Shown here: positions 3,702 to 16,945 of the stretch, piece by piece | Position numbering within the stretch: position 1 is the stretch's first letter | How the letters are laid out: each line of letters opens with the position of its first letter | Source: Promethearchaeota archaeon | GTDB taxonomy: Archaea > Asgardarchaeota > Lokiarchaeia > Sigyniarchaeales > SOKP01 | Direction of reading: 5' to 3' | Assembly: GCA_016839765.1 (NCBI GenBank) | Contig: JAEOTP010000020.1 | Location: forward strand, 1 to 33,400 | Length of the DNA stretch: 33,400 bases | Notes under the pieces: generated by a model | Told to the model about the DNA's origin: nothing | The model's database searches: none | The model's input: the letters and a program-made list of their open reading frames with translations, nothing else | Translations under genes and position numbers: made by a program

Positions 3702-4112
3702 ATGAAAAATGGATCTTCCTATTACGAAAATATAGAGGATTTAAAATCAAAAATTGGATTTGGAATAAAGTTTTGGTTAGAATTTCAAAATGATAAACGT
3801 AAAAATATATTAGGTTCAGGATGGGCAAAATTGTTGGAAAATATTGATAATACACAAAAAAATGAAACTAAGTCTTTAACTTTAGCTGCAAAAGAATGTG
3901 GATATTCATATAAATATGCTTGGAATATTATAAAAAGGATTGAAGATAGAACAGGCATGTCTCCTGTAGAAACCAGTAAAGGAGGCCGTGGAGGTGGTGG
4001 TTGGGTTAAATTGAATGAATGGGGTAAATATCTATTAAAAACTTATCGAAATTTACTTTTTGAATTAATAGAAATTGAGAAAAAACTTGAAAAATCCTTT
4101 AAAATAGATTAA
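3702..4112 (+). CDS. ModE-type winged-helix DNA-binding protein, effector domain absent
   Basis: A 136-residue protein whose middle matches the N-terminal DNA-binding domain of ModE and related LysR-like helix-turn-helix proteins. The recognition region reads LAAKECGYSYKYAWNIIKRI, and the wing is glycine-rich (KGGRGGGGWVKL), followed by the long amphipathic dimerisation helix. ModE binds molybdate through C-terminal MOP domains. None is encoded here, so this is a stand-alone DNA binder or an oxyanion-independent regulator. The first 50 residues (FGIKFWLEFQNDKRKNILG) form the usual strand-helix leader of the fold. It is divergent from the hydrolase at 2845-3597 and about 95 bases upstream of the CBS protein, either of which could be its target. 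Target and signal are unknown. Confidence 0.75.
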   Translation: MKNGSSYYENIEDLKSKIGFGIKFWLEFQNDKRKNILGSGWAKLLENIDNTQKNETKSLTLAAKECGYSYKYAWNIIKRIEDRTGMSPVETSKGGRGGGGWVKLNEWGKYLLKTYRNLLFELIEIEKKLEKSFKID

Positions 4113-4206: not shown

Positions 4207-4632
4207 ATGGAAGATAAACTCCAAAAATTTAATGAAGTAAAAGTTACTGAATTCATGATAAAGGATCCATTATATACAAGCCCTAATGAGAAAATAAGTA
4301 CTACTGAGCTTTTAATGTTAAGAAAAAATGTAGGTTGCCTTCCTGTTGTTAATAATTCTAAAAGCAAGAAAGTAATTGGAATAATAAGTCAGAGAGATAT
4401 TCGATTAGCTCGATTTGCTATGAATTTGGAATCTCCAAACACCAGAGTAAGAGATTTAATGACTCCCGATCCTATTATTGCTAAAAAAACAGATTCATTA
4501 ACTCAAATATTGGAAAAATTAGTAAAACATGATATCGAGCGATTACCTGTTATAAACGATAATGAAGAATTAATTGGTTTCATTACAAAACAATCGATTA
4601 TTGAAACAATTTACAAATATCTAAAAGAGTAG
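4207..4632 (+). CDS. CBS-domain-pair protein
   Basis: A small cytosolic protein made of two tandem CBS motifs (about residues 12-75 and 80-141), the minimal Bateman module that binds adenosine nucleotides. Each repeat shows the family pattern: VTEFMIKDPLYTSPNEKIST then GCLPVVNN and IGIISQRDI in the first, and VRDLMTPDPIIAKKTDSL then ERLPVINDNEELIGFITKQS in the second. The length equals that of the stand-alone archaeal members. No catalytic domain is attached, so it probably senses adenylate charge and acts on a partner. It lies just downstream of the ModE-like gene on the same strand, with its own AT-rich leader; the partner is not identifiable. Confidence 0.9.
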   Translation: MEDKLQKFNEVKVTEFMIKDPLYTSPNEKISTTELLMLRKNVGCLPVVNNSKSKKVIGIISQRDIRLARFAMNLESPNTRVRDLMTPDPIIAKKTDSLTQILEKLVKHDIERLPVINDNEELIGFITKQSIIETIYKYLKE

Positions 4633-4777: not shown

Positions 4778-6304
4778 ATGGCAATACCCCTTTCTGGAAC
4801 ACCGGTAATTCTCGATATCGGGTCTGCCTACACCAAAATAGGCTTTGCTGGTGAACCAGGCCCGCGTTTTATCTTTCCCACAATTACTGGAACTGAGAAA
4901 TATAAAGCTGTAATGGTGGATGTGAGTGCCAGAAACATATATGTTGGTAATGATGCTGCAAAAATGCGTGGAGTTTTGAAGATCAAACGCCCTATTGAAA
5001 GGGGAGCAATAATGGATTGGAACGATTTTTATGAAATTTTAAATTATTGCTTTTATTCACTTTTAAGAATTCCTGATGTTTCTCAGTATCCTGTTTTATA
5101 TACAGAGCCCCCTTTTTTACAGAAAGAAACTAAAGAATATGTTGCACGAGTATTGTTTGAAACTCACAGAGTTAAAAGCCTTATAATGGTTCCTACGCCT
5201 ATATTGTCTATGTTTAGTGTAGGATTAACTTCAGGTTTAATTATTGAAAGTGGAGATGGTATTACTTGGATTTGCCCAATCATTAATGGGCAAATTGTTG
5301 ATCAATCAGTACAAAAGTTAACATTAGGAGGTACTGACGTTAATCAATATCTGAAAAATCTGCTAATGAGAGAAGGTATTCATATAGAATCTAGTGCAGT
5401 TGATGAGATTATAAAAGATATGAAGGAAAAGAATTGTTATTTTGTATTGGATCCAAAAAATCCTCCAAAAAAAGATGAAAGGTTTAGCATTGCTATGCCA
5501 GATGGTTCTACTATAAGTATTCCACATTATATTTTTCATGAGGCACCTGAAGTACTATTCCAACCTAATTTAGTGGGATATCCGATAAGTAATGTACCTC
5601 AAGCTATTATTACAAGTCTCCAAGGGATTGATAAATATTATTGGAGTGAACTATTATCACATGTGGTTATTTCAGGTGGTAATTTGTCATACTCTGGTTT
5701 TGAAGAAAGGTTAAGAATAGAATTAAAAAAGCTACTTCCTCAATTAGGAAAAATACCTAAACCAAAAAGACAGAGCCCTAAGACTAAAGAAAAGGCTAAA
5801 CTGAAATCTATTGAAGGTTCGAAGAAAAAGCAAGATAATTGTCCTCATTGTGGCGTCCTTTTAGATTTATCTGATGAAAAAGAATTGTGTCCTAACTGCG
5901 GTGGTAGAATTGTGCTACCAGAGCTTTCTATTAATATAAATACCTCTAGTAAAAAGGCTCCTGTCATTGATGGTAAACTCTTATGTCCTCATTGTGGAAA
6001 GGAAATAACTGATATTGACTCTCTCTTTTGTCCATATTGTGGAAAAAACGTAGAATCACCCGATTTAGAAGAGATATCGAAAAAAGTTATTGATGAACCA
6101 CCTCCAGCTAAAGAATTTGCTGGTTTTTACGAGTCCTCAGAAGAAATTCTTAAATTCTTTGTTCCTGATAATCTTCAATACGCCATTTTTAGTGGAGCAA
6201 CAATTTTAGGAACGCTTCCTTCGTTTCAAAGGTTATTTATTACCCACGAGCAATTTCTTTCTAATAGTGATCTTTTATACAAAGATATAAGTGAAATTTT
6301 TTAA
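4778..6304 (+). CDS. Actin-related protein with two zinc ribbons inserted near the C-terminus
   Basis: The protein aligns with eukaryotic actin almost end to end. Phosphate loop 1 is LDIGSAYTKIGFAGEPGPR (Asp13, Lys20). Other matching stretches are RPIERGAIMDWND, PVLYTEPPF, ESGDGITW (157-164), KEKNCYFVLDP, APEVLFQPNLVG, VVISGGNLSYSGFEERL and the C-terminal FSGATILGTLPSFQRLFITHEQF. A D-loop of actin-like length is kept. Between residues about 325 and 435, where actin has only a short loop, a basic linker leads to two zinc ribbons: C355/C358/C371/C374 and C403/C406/C418/C421. Actin Gln137 corresponds to Thr140 and His161 to Trp164, so ATP hydrolysis is probably weak or absent; Asp154 is Glu157. 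Without the insert the length is near 400, close to actin. It starts a plus-strand run that includes a longin-like protein and a GTPase. An Asgard actin-related protein rather than a filament-forming lokiactin is the best reading. Confidence 0.9.
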   Translation: MAIPLSGTPVILDIGSAYTKIGFAGEPGPRFIFPTITGTEKYKAVMVDVSARNIYVGNDAAKMRGVLKIKRPIERGAIMDWNDFYEILNYCFYSLLRIPDVSQYPVLYTEPPFLQKETKEYVARVLFETHRVKSLIMVPTPILSMFSVGLTSGLIIESGDGITWICPIINGQIVDQSVQKLTLGGTDVNQYLKNLLMREGIHIESSAVDEIIKDMKEKNCYFVLDPKNPPKKDERFSIAMPDGSTISIPHYIFHEAPEVLFQPNLVGYPISNVPQAIITSLQGIDKYYWSELLSHVVISGGNLSYSGFEERLRIELKKLLPQLGKIPKPKRQSPKTKEKAKLKSIEGSKKKQDNCPHCGVLLDLSDEKELCPNCGGRIVLPELSININTSSKKAPVIDGKLLCPHCGKEITDIDSLFCPYCGKNVESPDLEEISKKVIDEPPPAKEFAGFYESSEEILKFFVPDNLQYAIFSGATILGTLPSFQRLFITHEQFLSNSDLLYKDISEIF

Positions 6305-6460: not shown

Positions 6461-7567
6461 TTGAAAAATAAACAACGTAGCTTAACAATAATAACTTTAA
6501 TGTTTACGGTATTTTTAATGTTTATTCCAGTAGTTTCAGCGAAAACAAGACAGAGCTACTTAGCAGATTTTCTTTTTCAAAACCAAATAGGAAATGAGAA
6601 ATTTGGTAATTCATATAAGGATACCTCATATGCTTTAGAAATAATTGATTATTATGATTTGTATGAAATTCAGGGATTATTTGGGCCTGAAACTAAAGTA
6701 GATAAACCAACTTTTATTGAAAATTTAGAAACAAAAGTAGAGGAAATGTTTGATGATGGAGAAATAGACTTATATGATTTATATTATTTATTAAGTTCAT
6801 TAGATATCTTAAATGGATCAGTCGCATTAGATTCAAATTACAAAGATAAGGTACATGAATATATTAATCAGACGGAGCAAATTTCTGGAGGTTATGCTAT
6901 AACTAATACATCTGCATCAGCAAATTTGGTTTCAACATATATTGTATACAATATATATACTTTATTAGATGAACCCATTTTCAATCAAACAACTCATTTA
7001 AATTGGATTTTATTGTGTAATAATACAGATGGTGGTTATGGAGGAAATCAAACATTACCTTCTACAATATTAACAACCTATTGTGCAGTATATTTAGTCA
7101 GTAAATTAACTACCGTAGATGATCTTGATAATAAAACTGCTACTTTAAATTACATACTTTCATTCTATTGTGATGATTCGCTTGATTCAGATAATTATGG
7201 AGGATTTCTGCCCGATTTAATCACAAATAATGCGCTATTAAGTAGTACTTATTACAGTATTGAATCTATAGAATTAATTGATGATTCAATATTAAATCCC
7301 GCAGCAACTATAGCCTGGGTATTATTTCGTCAAAATTTTCAAGACGGAGGATTTGTAGATGATCCTAGCGAGCATGAAGAAGGACTCTCCTCTATACCTG
7401 CAACTTTTCATGCATTTAAAATATTACATATCTTAAATGCTCTTGATAATTTAAATCAAGATATCTTTATGGTAGAATTCAATTATATAATTTTGATTAT
7501 AGTACTTTCGGTTATTGGTATAATAGCTGTAATAATTGTATTTATTTGGAGAAAAAGAAGATTATAA
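6461..7567 (+). CDS. Secreted, membrane-anchored alpha/alpha-toroid (prenyltransferase/terpene-cyclase-like) protein
   Basis: A signal peptide is clear: basic KNKQR, a hydrophobic stretch to about residue 25, then VVSA. One C-terminal transmembrane helix (about residues 341-362) is followed by RKRRL, giving an outside-facing domain held in the membrane. The ectodomain repeats the glycine-rich turns typical of the alpha/alpha-toroid fold of protein prenyltransferase beta subunits and squalene cyclases: ISGGYAIT, DGGYGGNQT, NYGGFLPDL and QDGGFVDDP. No DxDD or DCTAE-type catalytic motif of cyclases is visible, so a binding or structural role is likelier than catalysis. The start is TTG, chosen because the signal peptide needs it. 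It follows the actin-related gene by 156 bases. Several N-x-S/T sites are consistent with surface glycosylation. Confidence 0.75.
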   Translation: MKNKQRSLTIITLMFTVFLMFIPVVSAKTRQSYLADFLFQNQIGNEKFGNSYKDTSYALEIIDYYDLYEIQGLFGPETKVDKPTFIENLETKVEEMFDDGEIDLYDLYYLLSSLDILNGSVALDSNYKDKVHEYINQTEQISGGYAITNTSASANLVSTYIVYNIYTLLDEPIFNQTTHLNWILLCNNTDGGYGGNQTLPSTILTTYCAVYLVSKLTTVDDLDNKTATLNYILSFYCDDSLDSDNYGGFLPDLITNNALLSSTYYSIESIELIDDSILNPAATIAWVLFRQNFQDGGFVDDPSEHEEGLSSIPATFHAFKILHILNALDNLNQDIFMVEFNYIILIIVLSVIGIIAVIIVFIWRKRRL

Positions 7568-7640
7568 CCCTTCCTCTATATTTAATAATCATCTAATAAT
7601 ATTTAATTAAATCTTTGATTAACAATTTCATATATTGACT

Positions 7641-7648
7641 TTTATATT
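7641..7648 (+). promoter_or_regulatory. TATA box for folD
   Basis: TTTATATT lies about 35 bases before the ATG at 7680 and would set initiation around 7671, inside the longest possible reading frame. This argues for the internal ATG at 7680 over the upstream TTG at 7635. Confidence 0.45.
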
Positions 7649-7679
7649 CATAAAATTAATTTGTACAATTAGATTAACC

Positions 7680-8540
7680 ATGGAAAAAATCCTTGATGGA
7701 AAAAAATTAGCAGAAAAACTTAATTCTGAGTTAAAACAAGAAATTAACAATATTTTTGAAAAAACTGGAGTAAAACCAAAATTAGCGGCAATATTAGCAA
7801 ATGAAGATCCTGGCTCAGAGATATATGTAAATATGAAGAGGAAGAAATGTGCTGAGGTTGGCATTGAATCAATCTTGATTAAATTAGAAAAAGACATTTC
7901 AGAAAATACATTATTGGAAGAGATAAATAAACTCAATAATGATAATACTGTTCATGGTATTCTTTTGCAATTACCTCTTCCAACTAAATTAAAAGAGAGT
8001 ACAAATAAGTTTATAGAAAAAATTTCTCCCCTTAAAGATGTAGATGGTTTTAATCCTATTAATAAAGGTTTGCTTTTTGATTATAACGAAGAATTAGCAC
8101 CATGTACTCCCAAAGGAATAATTGCCCTGCTTGAATACTACAGCATAGAACTTAAGGGAAAAGACGTAGTTATCATTAATCGTTCCAATTTAGTGGGGAA
8201 GCCTCTTATTTTCATGCTTTTAAAGCGAAATGCAACTATAACGGTTTGTCATACATCAACAAAGAATATAGATAAGCACTTAAAAAGGGCGGATATATTA
8301 ATAGTTGCTGTAGGGAAACCTAAGTTTATAACAAAAGAAAAAATTAAAGAAGGCGCTATTATTATTGACGTGGGACAAAGTAGAGTTGAAGGGAAATTAT
8401 TTGGAGATGTTGATTTTGATCAAGTTTTTGAAAAATGCGGAGCGATTACCCCAACACCTGGGGGAGTAGGACCACTTACAGTAGCATTTTTACTCCAAAA
8501 TACCTTTATCGCATATAAAAAACAATTAAAAATTAACTAA
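7680..8540 (+). CDS. folD: Bifunctional methylenetetrahydrofolate dehydrogenase/methenyltetrahydrofolate cyclohydrolase
   Basis: FolD interconverts 5,10-methylene-, methenyl- and 10-formyl-tetrahydrofolate in the cytosol, using NADP. The protein starts MEKILDGKKLAEK, the normal FolD N-terminus. The catalytic YVNMKRKKC motif has Tyr49 and Lys53. Further signatures are GILLQLPLP, the dinucleotide-binding VVIINRSNLVGKPL, and the C-terminal TPTPGGVGPLTVAFLLQNT. The 286-residue length is typical. A longer frame from a TTG at 7635 adds 15 residues not seen in the family and overlaps the TATA box. In archaea FolD marks use of tetrahydrofolate as a C1 carrier, as reported for some Asgard lineages. 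It sits between genes of unrelated theme and has its own promoter. Confidence 0.95.
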   Translation: MEKILDGKKLAEKLNSELKQEINNIFEKTGVKPKLAAILANEDPGSEIYVNMKRKKCAEVGIESILIKLEKDISENTLLEEINKLNNDNTVHGILLQLPLPTKLKESTNKFIEKISPLKDVDGFNPINKGLLFDYNEELAPCTPKGIIALLEYYSIELKGKDVVIINRSNLVGKPLIFMLLKRNATITVCHTSTKNIDKHLKRADILIVAVGKPKFITKEKIKEGAIIIDVGQSRVEGKLFGDVDFDQVFEKCGAITPTPGGVGPLTVAFLLQNTFIAYKKQLKIN

Positions 8541-13544: not shown

Positions 13545-14504
13545 ATGCCAGATGTAAGAATTAAAACTCCAAATTTGGATGATATTTTCGAAAAGTGGAA
13601 ACAAGGGGCTGTTAGAAAGGATCGGAAGCATATGGAAAAACAATTTGGTACAAAAGGAGCTATCTTTTCCTTAGACGTTATATCTGCTGCGGAGTACGTT
13701 AAAGACACTATGAAAGAAGCAGCTATTTATTTTGCAGTTAAAAAAACTCTTGGACCCGCACCAATAGGTAAAGAAGAAAATGTTTTATTACCACCAAAAC
13801 TAGCTAGATTATATTTTTATTCTTTTAAGGGGTCCGGAAAAGTTGATAAAGAAACTTGGAAGGGTGATGAATTAGTGCCAATTTATGAATCTATTCAACC
13901 AGTATCTTGTAAGCGTTGCGGAGGAAAAGGATATATAGAAGAAAAGTGTAAGACCTGTAATGGAAATGGTAAAATTGAAGAAAATATAATCGTTTATGTA
14001 GGAGAAGAGCAAAAAAAAGAAAAGAAACCTTTTTCTTATTCATGTAATGTTTGTTATGGAACAGGAAGTCGCCGTAATCCATGTAAAGAGTGTGGAGGTC
14101 ATAAAAACCTATACAAATATGAAATTCTACCCGTTCCATTTAAGACAGTAGTTACAGGAGTCCCAGTACTTCATAGTAGTGCCCAAACTAGATACGAGAA
14201 GGAAATGGGAGAAGATCTTCACAAAATGCTTGAAGATGTCGAGGGAATTAAATTCAATGAATTTAAAGAGTTAGAGTCAAAAGCAGAAGCTTCCTTGGGT
14301 TATTGGAATAAAAATATAAAAAGGACTATTAGTTCAGCTGGGAGTGATCATAAAAGTTATCAAAAAGACAAAGATGTGCAGATAACGACACAGATCTATC
14401 TATTTCCACTAATTCAAATGTTTTGTGAAACTAAAAAAGGAAAAAAATTCGAGATCTATAGTCTAGGCTCAGCAAATAAATTTATGATCTATTCGAATTT
14501 TTAG
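13545..14504 (+). CDS. DnaJ-type zinc-finger protein lacking a J domain
   Basis: The central region carries four CxxC motifs of the DnaJ cysteine-rich type: C122/C125 (CKRCGGKGY), C135/C138 (CKTCNGNGK), C167/C170 (CNVCYGTGS) and C180/C183 (CKECGGHKN). They would bind two zinc ions and grip unfolded chains. The J domain that recruits Hsp70 is absent. The N-terminal 110 residues are an unrecognised mixed segment (KHMEKQFGTKGAIFSLDVIS), and the C-terminal 130 residues do not match DnaJ substrate-binding strands that I recognise. The start at ATG 13545 is preceded by GTGAGATC, a Shine-Dalgarno-like match. It diverges from the 53-residue gene. A zinc-dependent chaperone or protein-binding platform is likely; the client is unknown. 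Confidence 0.75.
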   Translation: MPDVRIKTPNLDDIFEKWKQGAVRKDRKHMEKQFGTKGAIFSLDVISAAEYVKDTMKEAAIYFAVKKTLGPAPIGKEENVLLPPKLARLYFYSFKGSGKVDKETWKGDELVPIYESIQPVSCKRCGGKGYIEEKCKTCNGNGKIEENIIVYVGEEQKKEKKPFSYSCNVCYGTGSRRNPCKECGGHKNLYKYEILPVPFKTVVTGVPVLHSSAQTRYEKEMGEDLHKMLEDVEGIKFNEFKELESKAEASLGYWNKNIKRTISSAGSDHKSYQKDKDVQITTQIYLFPLIQMFCETKKGKKFEIYSLGSANKFMIYSNF

Positions 14505-14588: not shown

Positions 14589-14846
14589 TCATTTGGAGAC
14601 GGCTTTATGTAATAATATAATAAAATTACTTCCTTTTCTATAATCACCTTTAACTTTATCTTCAACCCAGATTGAGCCATCAAAAGTAGTTATTATCTTT
14701 TTAACTAGAGAAAGACCTAAACCTAATCTTGAAAAGATATTTTTGTTTTGTTCATCAATTTGAAAAATTAATTTTTTCTGTTCATCAGGAATCCCTAATC
14801 CGTTATCAATAAATTCTATTTTTAAATAAATCTGAGATCTTAACAT
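14589..14846 (-). pseudogene. Histidine-kinase ATPase-domain remnant
   Basis: An 85-residue frame holds only the C-terminal half of a GHKL/HATPase_c domain. The G1 box DNGLGIPDE (14-22), an F-like segment KKLIFQ, the G2 box GLGLSLVKKI (42-51) and the final strands GSIWVED and GSNFIILL are present. The N box with its Mg-binding Asn, the dimerisation/phospho-acceptor His domain and any sensor are missing. In-frame extension upstream reaches a TGA at 14895-14897 after 16 codons without supplying them. It cannot be a working kinase alone. The ATG at 14846 sits at a sensible distance from the palindromic TATA region at 14877-14900, so the remnant may still be transcribed. Confidence 0.7.
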
Positions 14847-14926: not shown

Positions 14927-15541
14927 ATGTCCCAAAATAAAAAAATATCAAAAAGTAGAAACTTTTTTGGATACTTATTACCTCAAAATCCTTTAATTAT
15001 CTCAATCATTGCCATTTTTGCAGCATTAACATGTGTGTTGACTTTAGTAATTAGAGTACCAGTTCCAACCACATCAGGATATATTAATATTGGTGATATA
15101 GCTGTAATGTTTACTGGGTTATTATTTGGGCCAATAATTGGAGGAATTGCTGGGGGTATAGGTCCAGCAATAGCAGATTTAATTGGTTACCCTCTATTTA
15201 CTATTCCTACTCTAATAATTAAAGGATTAGAAGGATTTGTTGTAGGACTAATCTCGAATCCAAGAGATAAAGAACTTAGAGTTGACTATCGAGATATTAT
15301 TGCTGTTGTGATTGGTGGTGTTATTATGGTATCAGGATATTTTTTAGTTGAGGCTTATGTATTCGGGATGGGTATTGGGGTAGCGTTGAGTGAAGTTCCT
15401 GGGAATCTCTTTCAATTTTTATTTGGAATAATTGGTTCTATTTTACTCATAAGTATCATGCGTAAAAATGTGATAGTTAACCTACCACATATTTTCAATA
15501 AAGTTTTTATATTTGAGTCTTTAGAAACATCATCAGAATAA
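14927..15541 (+). CDS. ECF transporter S component (vitamin-type substrate-binding membrane protein)
   Basis: A membrane protein of 204 residues with five or six hydrophobic helices. It has the family signature GYINIGDIAVMFTGLLFGPI, then the glycine-rich GGIAGGIGPAIADLIGYP, and IIKGLEGFVVGLI. In energy-coupling-factor importers this S component binds a vitamin or precursor and docks on shared T and A components. None of those is encoded in this window. The sequence best fits the COG4720/HmpT-like group, whose members have been linked to riboflavin, thiamine precursors and other cofactors; the substrate here is undetermined. The ATG at 14927 is preferred to a TTG at 14879, which would lie inside the palindromic promoter; GTGAT seven bases before the ATG supports this. 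The last nine bases overlap the convergent threonine synthase gene. Confidence 0.85.
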   Translation: MSQNKKISKSRNFFGYLLPQNPLIISIIAIFAALTCVLTLVIRVPVPTTSGYINIGDIAVMFTGLLFGPIIGGIAGGIGPAIADLIGYPLFTIPTLIIKGLEGFVVGLISNPRDKELRVDYRDIIAVVIGGVIMVSGYFLVEAYVFGMGIGVALSEVPGNLFQFLFGIIGSILLISIMRKNVIVNLPHIFNKVFIFESLETSSE

Positions 15542-16945
15542 ATTAATAAGAGTTTCTAAAGCCTCTAATACTTTTTTTCCACTATCCATTATGGTATAGT
15601 ATACATTTTTCCCACTTTTTTCTCTGGATATTAATTTTTTTTCTTCTAACTCCTTTAAATGTTGATAAACAGCAGCTACACTAATTGATCCTAGCATATC
15701 TTTTATTTTAGTTCCATAAATACCTTTTTTACCTGCTAAAGAAATCTGAGTTAATATTTTCAATTTTGTACTTAATAAATTACCCATTCCAGCGGTTTTA
15801 GTTCTAGAGGAGAGTGCTTCTAAAACATAGGGTGCTTTTAATCCACTACCAGTAATAAGACAAACTATTTTTTCACTAGAATCAAATAATTCTTGCTGAT
15901 TTAAAATTTGAACTGCAGCTAAGGTTAAAGCAGAAGCAGGTTCAGCAAAAATACCTTCATTTCTAATTAATTCATCAATTGAATTTAAAATCAAATTTTC
16001 TGGAACAGCTAATGAAGTACCGTTACTTTCTTTTATAAATTTGATTGCTAAATCTTTATATGCAGGGTTTTTTACGAAAATACCTAATGCCAATGATTTT
16101 AAAATTTCCTTTTCTTCTCTTATTTTATGTTTTTTATGAAGAAACCCATCTACTATAGGAGCAGATATTTGAGATTGCACACCAATTAATTTTGGAACCT
16201 TTTGAATAATATTTGCTTCTTTAAGTTCATTATAGCTTTTCCATAAACTTACTAATAATTCCCCGCTTCCCATTGGAATTACTATCCAATCAGGAAGCCC
16301 TATTTGTTGATAAATCTCAAATCCAATTGTTTTTTGAGCTTCAATCGTAAGGGGGTTATATTCAGTAGTACATTGGTAATACTCTTTGTATTTAGAATCT
16401 AAAGCTAATTTAATAGCATCATCAATCAATTCCCCATCTACTATTATTTCAGAATTATAAGCAATCATCTGGGCTCTTTTTCCGATATCAATTTCACTTG
16501 GTATGATATTCACGCATTCTATTCCTTCTAATGATGCATAGGCAGCAATAGAAGCTCCTTGATTTCCATTAGAGGCACAAACCACTTTATCATATTCCCA
16601 ACTACGTGCGTGAGAAATTAATAATGCTGCAGGTCGATCTTTAAATGAATTGGTAGGATTTAGTGTTTCATCCTTGAAAAATAAATTTTTAAGTCCTAAA
16701 ATCTGTCCTATTTTTTCAGATTCCTTACATGGAGTACCACCTTCTCTTTTATCTAAAGAAACAAGAAAATCCTTTTCTATTTGTGGAAATGTAAAGTAAA
16801 AATCCCAAAAAGTATTAAGAGATTTGGAAAAATTACGTCGGTAGCTCTGAATATTTGTTTTAAACCACAAAAAACTTCCACAATGAGGGCATATATACTC
16901 AACTTTAGTAAATTTATATTCTCTGCTACAGTTAGTACAATTCAA
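15533..16945 (-). CDS. Threonine synthase-like PLP enzyme fused to a C-terminal winged-helix domain
   Basis: A pyridoxal-phosphate enzyme of the threonine synthase family, which converts O-phosphohomoserine to threonine. Residues 1-25 are a zinc ribbon (C3, C6, C19, C22). The PLP lysine is in NPTNSFKDRPAA (Lys102), and the phosphate-binding loop is ASNGNQGASIA (from 124). IPMGSGELLVS and CLITGSGLKAP fit the PLP cradle. Residues about 393-465 form a winged helix: KILTQISLAGKKGIYGTKI, then AAVYQHLKELEEKKLISREK and a wing VYYTIMDSG, in the style of ArsR/PadR regulators. The fusion suggests DNA binding tied to enzyme state, or a regulatory tail. The start is TTG, immediately before the zinc ribbon. 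Its stop overlaps the end of the ECF gene. Confidence 0.85.
   Translation of the reverse strand: MNCTNCSREYKFTKVEYICPHCGSFLWFKTNIQSYRRNFSKSLNTFWDFYFTFPQIEKDFLVSLDKREGGTPCKESEKIGQILGLKNLFFKDETLNPTNSFKDRPAALLISHARSWEYDKVVCASNGNQGASIAAYASLEGIECVNIIPSEIDIGKRAQMIAYNSEIIVDGELIDDAIKLALDSKYKEYYQCTTEYNPLTIEAQKTIGFEIYQQIGLPDWIVIPMGSGELLVSLWKSYNELKEANIIQKVPKLIGVQSQISAPIVDGFLHKKHKIREEKEILKSLALGIFVKNPAYKDLAIKFIKESNGTSLAVPENLILNSIDELIRNEGIFAEPASALTLAAVQILNQQELFDSSEKIVCLITGSGLKAPYVLEALSSRTKTAGMGNLLSTKLKILTQISLAGKKGIYGTKIKDMLGSISVAAVYQHLKELEEKKLISREKSGKNVYYTIMDSGKKVLEALETLINLF

What the first reader, a model, noticed from the sequence alone, without database searches (positions are those of the whole stretch)
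4778..6304. Actin-related protein with two zinc ribbons inserted in a C-terminal actin loop
Seen: actin-like sequence on both sides of an insert at about residues 325-435 that has two complete four-cysteine ribbons (C355/358/371/374 and C403/406/418/421) on a basic linker. Known: in actin this position is a short loop on the outer face near subdomains 1 and 3. Inference: the ribbons could recruit a nucleic acid or protein partner, so this would be a signalling or scaffold actin-related protein rather than a filament former. I do not know a described actin with this arrangement.
Basis: partly seen in the sequence, partly recalled or inferred. Interest (0 to 1): 0.85.

Follow-up and report, generated by a model that had tools for sequence, protein, structure and literature searches.

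The report
Zinc-ribbon actin-related protein of Lokiarchaea
One order of Asgard archaea carries a conserved actin relative with a flexible arm, bearing one or two zinc-binding modules, spliced into the actin fold where the human branching proteins Arp2 and Arp3 also carry extra pieces; it almost always sits beside one particular cell-surface gene, which makes it a testable, undescribed cytoskeleton component.

Summary
ORF 4778-6304 (+, 508 aa) is an actin-family protein whose fold is interrupted between actin residues ~323 and ~327 by ~135 aa carrying two C4 zinc ribbons. It is not an assembly artefact. Single-copy orthologues occur in 71 of 79 genomes of its order (Lokiarchaeia/Promethearchaeia) and, among 228 Asgard genomes searched, nowhere else. 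The four cysteines of ribbon 1 are invariant (42/42); ribbon 2 is missing only from one family (38/42). The basic linker is not conserved. The insert site is not unique: Arp2 and Arp3 have shorter inserts at the same loop. The protein is not their orthologue; its sister is another Lokiarchaeal ARP (100/100 support). It keeps ATP-binding residues but lost the hydrolysis pair Q137/H161. Its pointed-end face resembles lokiactin while its barbed-end face is eroded, the reverse of Arp1-4 (modest statistics). New: the next gene, a signal-peptide/alpha-alpha-toroid/one-TM surface protein, lies directly downstream in 65 of 66 genomes where both share a contig. Best reading: a non-filament-forming accessory ARP that docks on lokiactin filaments and recruits a partner through ribbon 1. 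No published description was found. The full-length structure prediction failed (shallow alignment).

The parts
4778..6304 (+). Zinc-ribbon actin-related protein (Zn-ARP), 508 aa, ATG start
   Evidence: start and length conserved in orthologues
4799..5752 (+). Actin fold, N-terminal part (residues 8-325)
   Evidence: Pfam PF00022 E 3.3e-66; PDB actins and Arps
5753..5839 (+). Variable linker 1 (residues 326-354), basic here, not basic in many relatives
5840..5905 (+). Zinc ribbon 1 (C355, C358, C371, C374), universal in the family
   Evidence: 42/42
5984..6049 (+). Zinc ribbon 2 (C403, C406, C418, C421), absent from one family
   Evidence: 38/42
6050..6148 (+). Variable linker 3 back to the actin fold
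6149..6301 (+). Actin fold, C-terminal strand/helix (residues 458-508; actin ~327-375)
   Evidence: second HMMER stretch to actin C-terminus; alignment
6461..7567 (+). Partner gene: signal peptide, alpha/alpha (prenyltransferase-type) toroid, C-terminal TM, short basic tail; 368 aa
   Evidence: PF00432 E 1.4e-17; conserved directly downstream
3702..4112 (+). ModE-like winged-helix regulator upstream, conserved in families f1 and f2
   Evidence: TIGR00637 2.4e-14, below cut-off; synteny
4207..4632 (+). Two-CBS-domain protein, between regulator and Zn-ARP in part of family f1 only
7635..8540 (+). FolD-like gene, next downstream in families f1-f3 (identified from sequence; probably unrelated in function)

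Best explanation
Zn-ARP is an accessory actin-related protein of the Lokiarchaeal actin cytoskeleton. It binds ATP but is expected to hydrolyse it slowly or not at all, so it behaves as a nucleotide-stabilised subunit and not as a treadmilling filament former. Its lokiactin-like pointed-end face lets it dock on the barbed end of a lokiactin filament (or dimerise with lokiactin); its remodelled barbed face, from which the zinc-ribbon arm projects on flexible linkers, disfavours adding another actin. Ribbon 1, and usually ribbon 2, recruits a partner, most likely a protein. Near-obligate linkage to a single-pass surface protein suggests the complex works at the cell membrane. Shown: architecture, conservation, phyletic range, loss of catalytic residues, gene linkage. 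Inferred: zinc binding, filament docking, polarity, partner recruitment, membrane role.
For: Actin fold on both sides of the insert. Single-copy orthologues in 71/79 genomes of the order. D11, G13, K18, G156, G182, E214 and G302 kept, K213 19/21; Q137 changed to S/T/A in 21/21 and H161 changed in most, while lokiactins keep both in 10/10. Pointed face more lokiactin-like than random positions (upper 5%), barbed face less (P 0.047); difference +0.28, permutation p 0.027, positive in all 21 members and opposite in sign to Arp1, 2, 3, 4 and the sister ARP. R62 and P243-D244-G245 21/21 and M44 20/21; Y169, V287, R290 largely lost. Ribbon cysteines invariant amid drifting linkers. Toroid gene downstream in 65/66 and missing together with Zn-ARP in G015 and G028.
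Against: Interface statistics are modest and the contact lists come from my knowledge of F-actin, not a structure of this protein. Arp2 and Arp3 also carry inserts here yet present their barbed faces to daughter filaments, so an insert alone does not block that face. Two genomes (G084, G085) keep Zn-ARP without the toroid gene. The toroid protein's cytoplasmic tail is only a few basic residues, so direct binding is not obvious. No usable full-length model. No biochemical data.
Confidence: 0.35

Rival explanations
1. A scaffold ARP in a nucleic-acid-linked complex, analogous to nuclear Arp4/Arp8 in chromatin remodellers: the fold is a monomeric scaffold and the ribbons bind DNA, RNA or a transcription component.
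For: Ribbons of this class resemble RNA polymerase subunit P and Nop10 ribbons (weak hits); ModE-like regulator upstream in f1/f2; ATP binding kept without hydrolysis residues, compare yeast Arp4.
Against: Linker charge is not conserved; Arp4 loses the pointed face completely while Zn-ARP keeps it; no remodeller gene was recognised in the neighbourhood; the constant neighbour is a surface protein.
Confidence: 0.2
2. An Arp2/Arp3-like nucleation subunit: the alphaK/beta15 insert anchors other subunits, and the ARP templates a filament together with its sister ARP (own genome L003), whose barbed face is the conserved one.
For: Same insert site as Arp2 and Arp3; inserts in Arp3 are reported to control filament interaction and attachment of a non-actin subunit (PMC4947185); Zn-ARP and its sister have complementary faces.
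Against: Tree places it with the sister ARP, not with Arp2 or Arp3; the Arp2/3 pattern (pointed face lost, barbed kept) is reversed; ARPC subunits were not searched for.
Confidence: 0.15
3. An independent filament former, or a subunit that copolymerises throughout lokiactin filaments, with ribbons decorating the filament side.
For: D-loop, R62 and the hydrophobic cleft residues I345, L346 and L349 largely kept.
Against: Barbed contact residues Y169, V287, D288 and R290 changed; catalytic pair lost.
Confidence: 0.15
4. Ribbons act as a zinc- or redox-responsive switch or as a ubiquitin-type protein binder unrelated to actin filaments.
For: Zinc ribbons are promiscuous in this genome (43 DZR-profile hits, 9 above cut-off).
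Against: No specific evidence; the best ubiquitin-binding finger model match is weak (E 0.054).
Confidence: 0.1

Closest known systems
Lokiactin / Asgard actin (own genome L001, L002; HC1 actin 9wc4)
   Same: Actin fold, ATP-binding residues, D-loop and pointed-face residues; about 36-38% identity over the core
   Different: Lokiactin has no insert, keeps Q137/H161 and the barbed face; Zn-ARP has 104-175 aa inserted and lost the hydrolysis pair
Arp2 and Arp3 of the Arp2/3 complex
   Same: Actin-related proteins with inserts at the same alphaK/beta15 loop (24 and 27-29 residues between actin 320 and 333, against 13 in actin)
   Different: Their inserts carry no zinc ribbon in the sequences compared; not sisters in the tree; opposite face conservation
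Lokiarchaeal ARP clade of own genome L003
   Same: Sister clade with 100/100 support; slightly lengthened loop at the same site (17 residues)
   Different: No ribbons; barbed face kept and pointed face eroded, the mirror pattern
Yeast Arp4 and other nuclear Arps
   Same: Inserts in an actin core; catalytic residues lost
   Different: The large Arp4 insert lies elsewhere, before actin ~275; its 320-333 stretch is 15 residues; pointed face lost. Arp5, 6 and 8 not tested

Membership tests
Actin superfamily (PF00022) | Whole-fold homology above gathering score | tested here: met
   224 bits vs cut-off 27; C-terminal strand recovered after the insert
Actin superfamily (PF00022) | Nucleotide-binding residues (P1, P2, adenosine) | tested here: met
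   D11, G13, K18, G156, G182, E214, G302 kept in 21/21 and K213 in 19/21
Conventional actin / lokiactin | Hydrolysis residues Q137 and H161 | tested here: not met
   Q137 replaced 21/21; H161 replaced in most members, H in 2/21
Conventional actin / lokiactin | Clusters with lokiactin or eukaryotic actin | tested here: not met
   Separate clade (97.3/99), sister to the L003 ARP clade
Conventional actin / lokiactin | Polymerises | not testable with these tools
   Needs purified protein
Arp2 or Arp3 | Phylogenetic placement with Arp2 or Arp3 | tested here: not met
   deep nodes weak, but the Zn-ARP + L003 clade has 100/100
Arp2 or Arp3 | Extended alphaK/beta15 loop | tested here: met
   Same site, much longer
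Arp2 or Arp3 | Companion ARPC1-5 subunits | not tested
   Not searched
Double zinc ribbon (PF12773) | Two C4 knuckle pairs above cut-off | tested here: met
   30.5 bits vs 27.3; ribbon 2 absent in family f4
Double zinc ribbon (PF12773) | Binds zinc | not testable with these tools
   Inferred from cysteine conservation

The most novel reading that the evidence does not exclude
Zn-ARP is an actin-derived barbed-end cap: an actin relative that uses its intact pointed face to terminate lokiactin filaments and its zinc-ribbon arm, in place of the next subunit, to tether the filament end to a membrane complex containing the toroid surface protein. Its sister ARP with the opposite intact face would mark the other filament end.
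Probability: 0.13. Interest if true: 0.85.

Novelty: new variant of a known kind. Interest (0 to 1): 0.62.

Why it matters
Asgard genomes carry several actin-related proteins beside lokiactin whose roles are unknown: three of the four actin homologues of Ca. L. ossiferum are unexplained ARPs (PMC9834061). Here one ARP gets a conserved architecture, a phyletic range, a sister ARP and a near-obligate partner gene. That makes the question of what Asgard ARPs do, and whether ARP-based control of filament ends predates eukaryotes, directly testable. A single-contig genome of the order (G042) carries the pair.

Tried and rejected
AlphaFold2 full length with the ten admissible sequences failed (mean pLDDT 36.5, pTM 0.20); treated as no information, since the alignment was ten sequences mostly 71-74% identical to the query. 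AlphaFold2 of the insert gave two ribbon-like segments at pLDDT ~60-70 with a ~45 linker (pTM 0.31), too weak for a fold search. A viral-contig scan for actin relatives to deepen the alignment found none. Assembly error or gene fusion: rejected, the architecture holds in 70 genomes. Insert present in other Asgard orders: rejected for 228 genomes at the sensitivity used; hits elsewhere match only the ribbon part or only the actin part of the profile. Nucleic-acid binding through a basic linker: weakened, charge not conserved. Toroid homologues of other orders were checked for an adjacent actin gene: none in L115, L116, L118. Literature: no held paper joins Asgard, ARP and zinc ribbon; Da Cunha 2022 on asgardactins is not held.

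Full report
OBSERVATION. The ORF at 4778-6304 (+) encodes 508 aa. Pfam finds Actin at residues 8-325 (E 3.3e-66) and zinc ribbons at 355-424, including DZR above its cut-off. A phmmer search of the PDB aligns residues 4-326 to actins and Arps (best 9wc4, HC1 actin, 240 bits) and recovers residues ~458-495 as the C-terminal actin segment.

NOT AN ARTEFACT. Of the five actin-family genes in this genome only this one carries the insert. Orthologues with the same architecture (about 490-566 aa) occur across four families of the order. With a profile of the C-terminal half, 70 of the 79 genomes of the order give E < 1e-27; one more (G047) has an N-terminal fragment at a contig end. Among 228 Asgard genomes none outside the order has it. 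Eight genomes of the order lack it, six of them 61-78% complete, the others G015 (92%) and G028 (100%). The record titles of close relatives read Candidatus Lokiarchaeota or Lokiarchaeia.

ANATOMY. In 42 orthologues ribbon-1 cysteines are invariant (42/42); ribbon-2 cysteines are 38/42, the four exceptions being the family f4 members that lack the whole ribbon. Ribbon 1 is as conserved as the actin core (mean top-residue frequency 0.72 vs 0.73), linkers are not (0.39-0.45). Insert length is 104-175 aa.

INSERT SITE. Between actin residues 320 and 333 actin has 13 residues, Arp1 12, the sister ARP 17, Arp2 24, Arp3 27-29, another Asgard ARP (L110) 36, and Zn-ARP 115-145 (Arp sequences from PDB alignments). 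This is the alphaK/beta15 loop of subdomain 3 (name and its barbed-end location from my own knowledge). Inserts there are therefore known. [quoted passage not shown] that one of them is this loop is from memory. Zinc ribbons there are what is new.

TREE. With own paralogues, other Asgard actins and eukaryotic actin, Arp1, Arp2, Arp3 and Arp4, Zn-ARPs form one clade (97.3/99), sister to a second Lokiarchaeal ARP clade (own genome L003) with 100/100 support; lokiactins are separate. Deep nodes are weak, so the relation to eukaryotic Arps is open, but it is not a member of Arp2 or Arp3 as sampled.

ACTIVE SITE AND FACES. ATP-contact residues are kept. Q137 is S/T/A in 21/21 and H161 is replaced in most members (H in 2/21); lokiactins keep both in 10/10. 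Using F-actin contact lists written down from my own knowledge before the test, similarity to lokiactin is high on the pointed face (random sets lower in 95.7% of draws) and low on the barbed face (P 0.047). The difference is +0.28 (permutation p 0.027, or 0.045 without residues 322-325) and positive in every one of 21 members. Eukaryotic comparators go the other way: Arp3 -0.51, Arp1 -0.49, Arp4 -0.72, Arp2 -0.25; so do the sister ARP (-0.26) and conventional eukaryotic actin itself (-0.28), which shows that pointed-face drift from lokiactin is common and that Zn-ARP is the exception. The members are related, so the p-values describe positions, not independent lineages. These are leads, not proof.

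PARTNER GENE. Directly downstream on the same strand is a signal-peptide / alpha-alpha-toroid (PF00432) / single-TM protein with a very short basic tail (topology from a simple hydropathy scan). It is adjacent in 65 of 66 genomes where both genes lie on one contig; in G004 it is 2.2 kb away. In G006 and G023 the two are on different contigs, with Zn-ARP at a contig end. G084 and G085 keep Zn-ARP but have an MFS-transporter-like gene in its place. G015 and G028 lack both genes, as do the less complete G044, G061 and G062. A ModE-like winged helix precedes the pair in f1 and f2. Homologues of the toroid protein in other orders are not beside actin genes in the loci read.

STRUCTURE. The full-length prediction failed for lack of alignment depth and says nothing for or against the fold. 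The insert model shows two ribbon-like segments joined by a low-confidence linker, weakly in line with two separate ribbons.

INTERPRETATION. The evidence favours an accessory ARP of the lokiactin system: nucleotide-bound, poorly hydrolysing, able to offer a lokiactin-like pointed face, with a zinc-ribbon arm emerging from its altered barbed face, and coupled genetically to a surface protein. Docking, polarity and recruitment remain inference. The nucleic-acid scaffold and the Arp2/3-like nucleator are live rivals.

NOVELTY. No held paper describes it. The key paper on asgardactins (Da Cunha 2022) and most subscription journals could not be read, so an earlier mention in a supplementary tree is possible. 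Rated as a new variant of a known kind: a defined ARP family with a new domain insertion and a linked partner gene.

Noticed in passing
6461-7567: Signal peptide / alpha-alpha toroid / TM surface protein next to Zn-ARP throughout the order; replaced by an MFS-transporter-like gene in G084 and G085 (L121, L120).
   Followed up: yes
L115 3893-4981; L118 2956-4053: In other orders of the class, homologous toroid-TM proteins lie near genes resembling ubiquitin E1/ThiF (L115) and an E2/RWD-like protein with a RING-like cysteine cluster (L115, L118), a possible link between this surface family and ubiquitin genes.
   Followed up: no
L003 and L100, L112, L114: The sister ARP clade keeps the barbed face and has an eroded pointed face, the mirror image of Zn-ARP.
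   Followed up: partly
L110: Another Asgard ARP with a 36-residue stretch at the same alphaK/beta15 site, no zinc ribbon: the loop is an insertion hot spot.
   Followed up: no
15533-16945 (-): Threonine-synthase-like protein with an N-terminal zinc ribbon and what reads as a C-terminal winged-helix domain.
   Followed up: no
13545-14504 (+): Protein with DnaJ-type CxxCxGxG cysteine repeats but no evident J domain.
   Followed up: no
14589-14846 (-): 85-aa ORF that reads like the C-terminal ATPase end of a histidine kinase, possibly a gene remnant.
   Followed up: no
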